Source: a virus
Virus record (IMG/VR): IMGVR_UViG_3300029915_000144
Location: 1-24,182 of that record
Strand: one strand, 5' to 3'
Length of the DNA stretch: 24,182 bases
The translations under genes were made by a program, and so were the position numbers. Positions 4,226 through 17,302 of the stretch are shown here, one piece after another. Within the stretch, counting starts at the first letter, position 1. Every line of letters starts with the position of its first letter. The notes under the pieces were generated by a model. The model had not been told where the DNA came from. It was given only the letters and a program-made list of their open reading frames with translations, and did not search any database.

Positions 4226-4942
4226 ATGTTCGAATTTAAAGATTTCTTGGAAGAAAAATTAACGTTAAAATATCACGGCAAGCTGAATCAGAAGTTATTT
4301 CAAGATGATAAGCTGAAGGAAGAGGTTCGGGTCAAGATGCTGGAAGTCGCGCAGGCATGGCAGCACTTCGCCAAGATTCCTGATAGCCTCGTGAAGGATG
4401 TGATTTTCACAGGCGGATGCGCCAATTATAATTACACAATTTACAGTGATTTGGATATCCATATCGTGATGGATCGTTATAAACTTTTCGCGGATAAGGT
4501 ATATGTGGACGACTATCTATCTGATAAGAAAACACTTTGGTCCCTCACTCGCAAGATCAAAATCAAGGGATATCCGGTGGAGCTATACGCGCAAGATTCT
4601 AAGGACATCCTAGCGGCATCGGGCGTCTACTCCCTCCGATATAACAAGTGGCTTGCCAAGCCGATCCACGGCTCTTATAACTTCAGCCACGATGAGGCCC
4701 TAGAAAAAAAGGTTGACGAATTCACCGAGATGGTGGATACTATGATTTCTAACAAGGCCTCGGAGGTAGAATTCAAGACACTGAGGGATAAGATCAAAAA
4801 TATGCGGAATGCAGCCCTTGCCTCTGGGAACGAGTTTAGTTTTGATAATAATTTATTTAAATCACTCAGAAATGATGGTGTTTTAGATAGAATGAATAAA
4901 TACGTCGAAAGTATCAGGGATAAGGATTTGAGTCTTGATTGA
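4226..4942 (+). CDS. Nucleotidyltransferase-fold protein (pol beta superfamily)
   Basis: A 238-aa protein with a pol beta-type nucleotidyltransferase core: FTGGCANYNYTIYSDLDIHI at 61-80, that is GG (63-64) followed by S74-D75-x-D77, the metal-binding acidic pair. A third acid is plausibly E119 in the GYPVELYAQD strand. Such enzymes transfer a nucleotide to RNA, protein or a small molecule; the substrate here is unknown. The C-terminal half is helical and charged. AGAGG about 6 nt upstream supports the ATG. The gene opens a plus-strand block and is divergent from minus-strand promoter 3. Annotated only as a predicted nucleotidyltransferase in comparable phages, as far as I recall. Confidence 0.75.
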   Translation: MFEFKDFLEEKLTLKYHGKLNQKLFQDDKLKEEVRVKMLEVAQAWQHFAKIPDSLVKDVIFTGGCANYNYTIYSDLDIHIVMDRYKLFADKVYVDDYLSDKKTLWSLTRKIKIKGYPVELYAQDSKDILAASGVYSLRYNKWLAKPIHGSYNFSHDEALEKKVDEFTEMVDTMISNKASEVEFKTLRDKIKNMRNAALASGNEFSFDNNLFKSLRNDGVLDRMNKYVESIRDKDLSLD

Positions 4943-16491: not shown

Positions 16492-16499
16492 TATAAATA
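16492..16499 (+). promoter_or_regulatory. T4-type late promoter-like TATAAATA ahead of tRNA cluster
   Basis: A perfect TATAAATA lies in the gap between gapR and the first tRNA, with predicted initiation about 6 nt downstream (near 16505), just before tRNA-Asn at 16514. A weak sigma70 reading (TTGATA at 16471, spacer 15) is also possible. Confidence 0.4.
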
Positions 16500-16513: not shown

Positions 16514-16592
16514 TCCTAGGAAACCAAGCTTGGTGCAAGGTCTTGCCTGTTAAGCAATGATTAGCTGGGTTCGATCCCCAGACTAGGAGCCA
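16514..16592 (+). tRNA. tRNA-Asn (GUU)
   Basis: Acceptor TCCTAGG/ACTAGGA has one G-A mismatch at the base. The anticodon loop CTGTTAA carries GUU at 16549-16551, with four paired bases (TTGC/GCAA). The T-arm CTGGG-TTCGATC-CCCAG is perfect, and discriminator G and encoded CCA follow (16589-16592). G73 and the loop sequence match bacterial tRNA-Asn. The D-stem is short (ACC/GGT). Confidence 0.82.
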
Positions 16593-16600
16593 GTTTAGAA

Positions 16601-16670
16601 GTTAACTTATTCTAGTGGTAGCAGATACCGCGCCAAGCGGAGGCAGAGTGTTCGATTCCTCTAGTTAACT
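16601..16670 (+). tRNA. tRNA-like element 1, 13-bp extended acceptor, anticodon unresolved
   Basis: Acceptor GTTAACT/AGTTAAC is perfect and continues outward as TTAGAA/TTCTAA (16595-16600 with 16670-16675). The D-arm is TCT/AGA around AGTGGTAGC, and the T-loop is TTCGATT. The T-stem AGAGG/CCTCT needs one bulged base (T16649). The anticodon arm is irregular: CCGC/GCGG leaves only a 5-nt loop (GCCAA), while a 7-nt loop would give CCA with G at position 33. No CCA is encoded. It could be a degenerate tRNA-Gly or a decoy. Confidence 0.5.
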
Positions 16671-16686
16671 TCTAATACATTTAGAA

Positions 16687-16758
16687 TGATAGTTTAGTTT
16701 AAAAGATAAAACTTCGGCTTTATATCCACGAAATGTGGCTCAGTCCCACAACTATCAT
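16687..16758 (+). tRNA. tRNA-like element 2, about 18-bp extended acceptor, anticodon unresolved
   Basis: Acceptor TGATAGT/ACTATCA is extended by TTAGAA/TTCTAA and, after a one-base bulge, five more pairs (out to 16675 and 16768). The D-arm GTTT/AAAC and T-arm TGTGG-CTCAGTC-CCACA form, but the D-loop lacks GG and the T-loop lacks T54 and A58. Only about 20 nt remain for the anticodon arm and no regular 5-bp/7-nt arm can be drawn. No CCA is encoded. Confidence 0.45.
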
Positions 16759-16766
16759 TCTAATGT

Positions 16767-16815
16767 ATCATAAATGAGACGTAAGGCCGGATAATGCATC
16801 ATATATGAGACATAA
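16767..16815 (+). repeat. Imperfect 18-bp direct repeat spanning two start codons
   Basis: Bases 16767-16784 and 16798-16815 match at 16 of 18 positions, 31 bp apart. Each copy contains ATGAGA: the first opens a 6-codon dead-end ORF, the second is the start of the deaminase-like gene. Confidence 0.75.
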
Positions 16816-17212
16816 CGAGATTTACGACACCATGTTCAACATGGCCCTCGCCGTCGAAAAGACATCCAACGCCAAGATGGTTTCAGGAATTTTTAGAAGA
16901 ACTAAACTGATTTCCTTCGGCGTCAACTCCAAGAAATCCCATCCCTTCCAGAAGAGGTTCGGCTCCATCGAAGAATGTATTTACCTACATTCTGAAATTG
17001 ATGCTATCAAAAATGCCCTGCGTGTGATATCCTTGGATGATCTAAAAAGGTGTTCGATTTACGTTTCTAGGGTGAAAAAGGACAAGCCGAGGGGAAAATA
17101 TGTCTCAGGCCTCGCCAAGCCATGTGCCGGATGTATGAATGCCATCGCCGCCTTTGAAATTAAAAGCGTCTTCTACACAGAAGATGATAAAAGAGGCTTT
17201 ACATGTCAATAA
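16805..17212 (+). CDS. Cytidine/deoxycytidylate deaminase-fold protein (135 aa)
   Basis: Zinc-deaminase motifs are present: H62-S-E64 (HSEIDAIKNA) and P106-C107-A-G-C110 (PCAGCMNAI), giving His/Cys/Cys zinc ligands and a catalytic Glu. In T4-like phages dCMP deaminase feeds dTTP synthesis; this protein is shorter than T4 Cd (193 aa) and could instead act on another nucleotide or on RNA. The last is worth considering because the gene sits between tRNA genes. ATG 16805 lacks a good ribosome-binding site and is inside a direct repeat. Confidence 0.72.
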   Translation: MRHNEIYDTMFNMALAVEKTSNAKMVSGIFRRTKLISFGVNSKKSHPFQKRFGSIEECIYLHSEIDAIKNALRVISLDDLKRCSIYVSRVKKDKPRGKYVSGLAKPCAGCMNAIAAFEIKSVFYTEDDKRGFTCQ

Positions 17213-17228
17213 ATATCGTATATATTAT

Positions 17229-17302
17229 TCCCTTGTCGTCTAATGGTAGGACACTGGTCTCTGAAACCTGAAACTGTGGTTCGACCCCACACGAGGGAGC
17301 CA
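17229..17302 (+). tRNA. tRNA-Gln (CUG)
   Basis: Acceptor TCCCTTG/CGAGGGA, D-arm GTCT-AATGGTA-GGAC, anticodon loop CTCTGAA (anticodon CUG at 17260-17262), T-arm TGTGG-TTCGACC-CCACA, discriminator G and encoded CCA. The anticodon stem has one T-T mismatch. It reads CAG codons. Confidence 0.9.

What the first reader, a model, noticed from the sequence alone, without database searches (positions are those of the whole stretch)
16595..16768. Two tRNA-like elements with extended acceptor helices sharing an outer TTAGAA/TTCTAA clamp
Elements at 16601-16670 and 16687-16758 have good acceptor pairing and recognisable D and T arms. Their acceptor stems continue outward for 6 more pairs with the same sequence (TTAGAA with TTCTAA), and the second continues for 5 further pairs after a bulge. 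Neither encodes CCA and both have irregular anticodon arms. Shared outer pairing in two adjacent elements suggests a processing signal or a deliberate tRNA mimic, for instance a decoy for host anticodon nucleases (inference), rather than random decay.
Basis: partly seen in the sequence, partly recalled or inferred. Interest (0 to 1): 0.72.

Follow-up and report, generated by a model that had tools for sequence, protein, structure and literature searches.

The report
Phage tRNA-like genes with clamped ends
Two odd tRNA-like genes in a T4-like phage have their two ends zipped together by an extra helix; the same build recurs in a minority of tRNA genes of other T4-like phages, where the helix is kept by matching mutations, so it is probably a selected step in making these RNAs and not decay, although what these two particular RNAs do is unproven.

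Summary
Two tRNA-like elements (e2, acceptor 16601-16669; e3, acceptor 16687-16757) have acceptor stems continued outward by TTAGAA/TTCTAA, and e3 by five more pairs after a bulge. Neither encodes CCA and both have irregular anticodon arms. Random windows gave no such structure (0 hits in 60).

Direct evidence at the locus is thin. Three sister contigs are identical. One relative (L005) has a single related element with the same clamp and one mismatch. A third (L013) lacks the slot's contents.

The architecture is real elsewhere. Among 368 distinct phage tRNAs, outer pairing is bimodal: 343 have 0-2 contiguous outer pairs, none 3-5, and 25 have 6-14. In KVP40-like phages two such outer helices are 99-100% paired, with both-side changes at 4 of 14 and 4 of 13 pairs. 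Clamped tRNAs mostly lack encoded CCA (19/25 against 32/343). Several are ordinary-looking tRNAs (Asn, Arg, CAU).

I read the clamp as a leader-trailer processing or protection helix of CCA-less phage tRNA genes. e2/e3 are divergent, probably non-decoding members. The anticodon-nuclease decoy idea has no specific support.

The parts
16492..16499 (+). TATAAATA, like a T4 late promoter, upstream of the tRNA array
   Evidence: 3 in the window, 1.15 expected by chance; conserved in L005
16514..16592 (+). e1: tRNA-Asn(GUU) with encoded CCA, divergent D arm, missed by ARAGORN and Rfam
   Evidence: identical in L005, and compensatory acceptor (A-T to G-C) and D-stem (A-T to T-A) changes in L013
16595..16600 (+). 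e2 outer clamp, 5' strand TTAGAA
   Evidence: repeat I5
16601..16669 (+). e2: tRNA-like core, acceptor 16601-16607/16663-16669, bulged T stem, 5-nt (or C32-G38 closed) anticodon loop, no CCA
16670..16675 (+). e2 outer clamp, 3' strand TTCTAA
16675..16680 (+). e3 outermost 5' strand (16675-16679) and bulged T16680
16681..16686 (+). e3 outer clamp, 5' strand TTAGAA
   Evidence: repeat I4
16687..16757 (+). e3: tRNA-like core, acceptor 16687-16693/16751-16757, non-consensus D and T loops, broken anticodon stem, no CCA
   Evidence: Rfam tRNA 28.4 bits, below the cut-off of 29
16758..16763 (+). e3 outer clamp, 3' strand TTCTAA
16764..16768 (+). e3 outermost 3' strand TGTAT
16805..17212 (+). deaminase-family ORF downstream of the array (context)
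   Evidence: Pfam PF00383, E 4.8e-8
17229..17302 (+). tRNA-Gln(CUG) with CCA (context), no outer helix

Best explanation
e2 and e3 belong to a minority class of T4-like phage tRNA genes whose leader and trailer pair and extend the acceptor stem by 6-14 bp. The clamp most likely acts on the precursor RNA. It closes the ends, which should hinder RNase P (pairing of the 5' leader with the 3' end is known to inhibit it) and 3' exonucleases. The RNA would then be released by endonucleolytic cutting of, or at the base of, the helix (RNase III- or RNase Z-type), and CCA would be added afterwards. Shown: the pairing; recurrence as a separate class; compensatory change in relatives at other loci; association with missing CCA. 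Inferred: action as RNA, the nuclease route, CCA addition, and that e2/e3 still use it. With disturbed anticodon arms, and in e3 also D and T loops, e2 and e3 are probably divergent, non-decoding members.
For: Perfect helices and chance control. L005 keeps the clamp with a one-base shortening of each strand. 343 of 368 distinct phage tRNAs have 0-2 contiguous outer pairs, none 3-5, 25 have 6-14, most often 13-14. Outer helices in KVP40 relatives: 99.3% and 100% of cells paired, both-side changes at 4 of 14 and 4 of 13 pairs; slid registers give 31-60% paired and at most one such pair. Aeromonas phages carry the clamp on tRNAs with normal anticodon loops, with a compensatory T-A to A-T change in the CAU tRNA clamp. 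Same architecture inside tRNA clusters of L137 and L138. CCA missing in 19/25 clamped against 32/343 others. Leader/3'-RCCA pairing inhibits RNase P (PMC9433436).
Against: At the window locus the clamp sequence is invariant, so there is no covariation for e2/e3 themselves. Their clamps (6 and 7+5 bp) are shorter than the usual 13-14. e3 has lost tRNA consensus in several arms. Six of 25 clamped genes do encode CCA. The 25 are not phylogenetically independent, and KVP40 and Aeromonas relatives were fetched because they carry the helix. No RNA data were available.
Confidence: 0.55

Rival explanations
1. e2 and e3 are decaying tRNA genes. The clamp is inherited by tandem duplication from one ancestral clamped tRNA like that of L005 and has no present function in this phage.
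For: Irregular anticodon arms, e3 non-consensus D and T loops, Rfam score below cut-off. L005 holds one better-formed element (44.7 bits) in the same slot. tRNA content of the locus turns over: unrelated tRNA-Gln in L005, empty slot in L013.
Against: Acceptor and outer helices are perfect in both elements although the acceptor sequences differ. The e3 helix is longer and better paired than that of L005. Decay should break helices as readily as loops.
Confidence: 0.25
2. e2 and e3 are tRNA mimics that stay unprocessed and bind host tRNA-processing or tRNA-cutting enzymes, for example as decoys for anticodon nucleases.
For: No CCA and abnormal anticodon loops; helix-closed ends would resist trimming (inference); the C32-G38 pair gives a tight loop in e2 and L005; phage tRNAs with altered anticodon loops are reported to evade tRNA-targeting defences (PMC10264068, title and abstract only).
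Against: Clamped genes elsewhere have normal anticodon loops, so the clamp is not tied to mimicry. e3 lacks the loop contacts a good mimic needs. No target nuclease was identified.
Confidence: 0.12
3. The inverted flanks act as DNA: ends of an exchangeable tRNA cassette, a recombination site or a cruciform.
For: The slot differs between close relatives (two elements, one element, none) with the same flanking TTTAGAA/TTCTAA; compensatory change would also preserve a DNA inverted repeat.
Against: In KVP40-like phages the inverted repeats stay at the same locus and always abut the acceptor stem in register. No recombinase or target duplication was seen. The IMG/VR search for the clamp gave only two further tRNA-like cases with paired acceptors among 69 hits.
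Confidence: 0.08

Closest known systems
Clamped tRNA genes of Aeromonas T4-like phages (Aeh1 tRNA-Asn and CAU tRNA, phiAS5 Arg); annotated as plain tRNAs where annotated, phiAS5 Arg unannotated
   Same: tRNA core in a tRNA cluster, leader and trailer extend the acceptor, no encoded CCA
   Different: 12-14 outer pairs and normal anticodon loops; e2/e3 have 6-7 (+5) and abnormal ones
KVP40-like tRNA-like genes near gene 57B (unannotated or annotated as pseudo/other tRNAs)
   Same: Extended acceptor helix on a tRNA-like gene with a disturbed anticodon arm
   Different: The disturbance is a structured insert that makes the interior about 105 nt; e2/e3 interiors are 55 nt; KVP40 element 1 encodes CCA
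T4 stable RNAs C and D (rnaC, rnaD)
   Same: Non-tRNA RNAs in a T4-type tRNA cluster; rnaC ends in a T-arm
   Different: 119-139 nt; my descriptor finds no extended acceptor helix in them
L137 and L138 elements (IMG/VR)
   Same: CCA-less, clamp containing TTAGAA/TTCTAA, irregular anticodon arm, inside tRNA clusters
   Different: Otherwise unrelated sequences; the clamp match is by the search pattern; L137 helix is about 20 bp

Membership tests
canonical bacterial-type tRNA | reaches the Rfam RF00005 gathering score (29 bits) | tested here: not met
   e3 28.4 bits, e2 no hit up to E 1
canonical bacterial-type tRNA | 7-nt anticodon loop with U33 on an intact stem | tested here: not met
   e2 loop CGCCAAG has G33 and can close to 5 nt; e3 stem is broken
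canonical bacterial-type tRNA | 7-bp acceptor and 5-bp T stem with a TTC-type loop | tested here: inconclusive
   acceptors perfect; e2 T stem has one bulged base; e3 T loop is CTCAGTC
canonical bacterial-type tRNA | encoded CCA, or CCA added after processing | tested here: inconclusive
   not encoded; addition needs RNA data
clamped phage tRNA class (defined in this report) | six or more contiguous outer pairs beyond a 7-bp acceptor | tested here: met
   e2 6, e3 7 plus 5 after a bulge; threshold from the gap
clamped phage tRNA class (defined in this report) | outer helix kept by compensatory change | tested here: inconclusive
   shown in KVP40 relatives, not testable for e2/e3, where the clamp is invariant
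T4 rnaC/rnaD | length and fold of rnaC or rnaD | tested here: not met
   no extended acceptor in rnaC/rnaD; e2/e3 about 80 nt
anticodon-nuclease decoy | binds or is cut by a host tRNA nuclease | not testable with these tools
   no target identified

The most novel reading that the evidence does not exclude
Clamp-ended tRNA-like RNAs with dead anticodon arms form a separate kind of phage non-coding RNA that never becomes tRNA: the clamp keeps them as stable, CCA-less, uncharged tRNA-shaped molecules that act on the host's tRNA-processing or tRNA-cutting enzymes.
Probability: 0.15. Interest if true: 0.8.

Novelty: new variant of a known kind. Interest (0 to 1): 0.5.

Why it matters
Standard tRNA finders ignore the flanks, so a class of phage tRNA genes with conserved leader-trailer helices has apparently been annotated as ordinary tRNAs, as pseudogenes, or not at all; my limited searches of open papers found no description of it. 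If the clamp directs maturation, it shows a CCA-independent route by which phages make tRNAs inside infected cells, at a time when phage tRNAs are being linked to evasion of tRNA-cutting immunity. It also makes testable which 'pseudo' tRNAs are live RNAs.

Tried and rejected
Sister contigs L002-L004 are identical over the array and uninformative. blastn of e2 and e3 against phage records gave only short chance-like matches; L005's element matched a cyanophage tRNA-Gly at 80%. A general terminator role was rejected: only L039 and some KVP40 elements are followed by T runs. The cellular-tRNA isotype of e2/e3 could not be settled (Gly-, Glu-, Lys- and Trp-like readings all need indels). T4 rnaC/rnaD as homologues were rejected. 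Of 69 clamp-pattern hits in IMG/VR only two new ones have paired acceptors; the rest look like chance matches. Relatives of a virus record cannot be drawn by the genome search. The L092 tRNA-Trp 'extension' was a register artefact.

Full report
OBSERVATION. The helices are perfect: 16595-16607 with 16663-16675 and 16681-16694 with 16750-16763. Five more pairs outside e3 (16675-16679 with 16764-16768) follow a bulged T16680; A16675 is shared with the e2 clamp. Folding z-scores are -3.5 and -4.6. A descriptor of T-arm plus a helix of at least 13 bp hits only these two places in the window and nothing in 60 random windows.

THE LOCUS IN RELATIVES. Three contigs are identical (L002-L004). L005 has an identical e1 and a 97% identical deaminase, but one element instead of two. 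It keeps the clamp TTTAGAA/TTCTAA and shares 14 nt of the 5' half of e3; each clamp strand is one base shorter than in e3, leaving one G-A mismatch. ARAGORN calls it tRNA-Lys(UUU); Rfam gives 44.7 bits. L013 (68-69% deaminase identity) has e1 with compensatory changes and nothing in the e2/e3 slot. tRNA-Asn and tRNA-Gln flank the deaminase in the more distant L035 and L039 too. So e1 is stable and the e2/e3 slot turns over. Because the clamp does not vary in sequence, covariation cannot be tested here.

THE ARCHITECTURE ELSEWHERE. In 189 ARAGORN tRNAs from contigs chosen only by gene homology, nearly all have no outer pairs; the exceptions are L005 and the tRNA-Asn of L039/L103, whose acceptor continues to about 17-19 bp and which lacks CCA. 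A scan of IMG/VR for the clamp around a T-loop gave 69 hits, of which two new ones have paired acceptors, in L137 (about 20-bp helix, inside a 13-tRNA cluster) and L138 (14 bp, inside a tRNA cluster on a contig with a gp43-like polymerase; its tRNA-His is clamped too). Phages picked for their tRNA clusters then showed the same: several genes in Aeh1 and two in KVP40, none in T4 or Felix O1. Across 368 distinct tRNAs the contiguous outer pairing is 0-2 in 343, 3-5 in none and 6-14 in 25. That count includes relatives fetched for carrying the helix, so it shows a separate class, not a frequency.

SELECTION ON THE HELIX. Twelve KVP40 relatives keep both outer helices. Element 1: 99.3% of cells paired, both-side changes at 4 of 14 pairs; element 2: 100%, 4 of 13; slid registers give 31-60% paired and at most one such pair. 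In Aeromonas phages the CAU tRNA clamp shows one compensatory change, and clamps sit on normal tRNAs such as phiAS5 Arg(UCU) and Aeh1 Asn(GUU). Clamped genes lack encoded CCA in 19 of 25 cases, others in 32 of 343 (not phylogenetically independent).

MECHANISM. Pairing of the 5' leader with the 3' RCCA inhibits bacterial RNase P before catalysis (PMC9433436). A 6-14-bp clamp should therefore delay RNase P and shield the 3' end, so release would need an endonuclease acting on or beside the helix, with CCA added later. The usual total of about 20-21 bp would fit a double-strand-specific enzyme such as RNase III; this is inference. e2 and e3 have shorter clamps and damaged decoding parts, so they may be late or lapsed users of this route.

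LITERATURE. Searches of open papers found tRNA pseudogenes noted for Aeh1 (PMC1524935) and phi-pp2/KVP40 (PMC3468402), but no mention of leader-trailer helices. Absence in this library is weak evidence of novelty.

Noticed in passing
L180 (Aeh1), L181 and L185-L196 (KVP40-like), L198, L199, L201 (Aeromonas phages): Many 'pseudo' tRNAs carry 25-50-nt structured inserts in the anticodon loop; phiAS5 has an uninterrupted tRNA-Arg counterpart, and PX29's tRNA-Lys is annotated as a join of two pieces. They look like very small introns, far below group I size. In KVP40 relatives the insert hairpin itself varies in a paired way.
   Followed up: partly
window 17229-17302 and L005 1294-1369: The tRNA-Gln(CUG) slot holds two unrelated tRNA-Gln(CUG) genes in otherwise near-identical phages: swap of the gene with the decoding kept.
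   Followed up: no
L039 3858-3946 and 2561-2648: The tRNA-Gln and tRNA-Asn of this contig have hairpin-like insertions in the variable loop.
   Followed up: no
window 16514-16592, L013 3158-3238: The tRNA-Asn T-loop changes from TTCGATC to ATCGTTA in L013 (positions 54 and 58 both changed); e3 has CTCAGTC. The 54/58 letters stay complementary in all three.
   Followed up: no
window 4226-4942: ORF with a weak nucleotidyltransferase match (PF01909, below cut-off; phrog_36119 of unknown function) just upstream of tRNA-Leu; could bear on tRNA end repair.
   Followed up: no
L180 (Aeh1) 16650-16779: A 14-bp helix encloses what looks like two tRNA 3' halves in tandem (two T-arms), possibly a fused or duplicated tRNA.
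   Followed up: no
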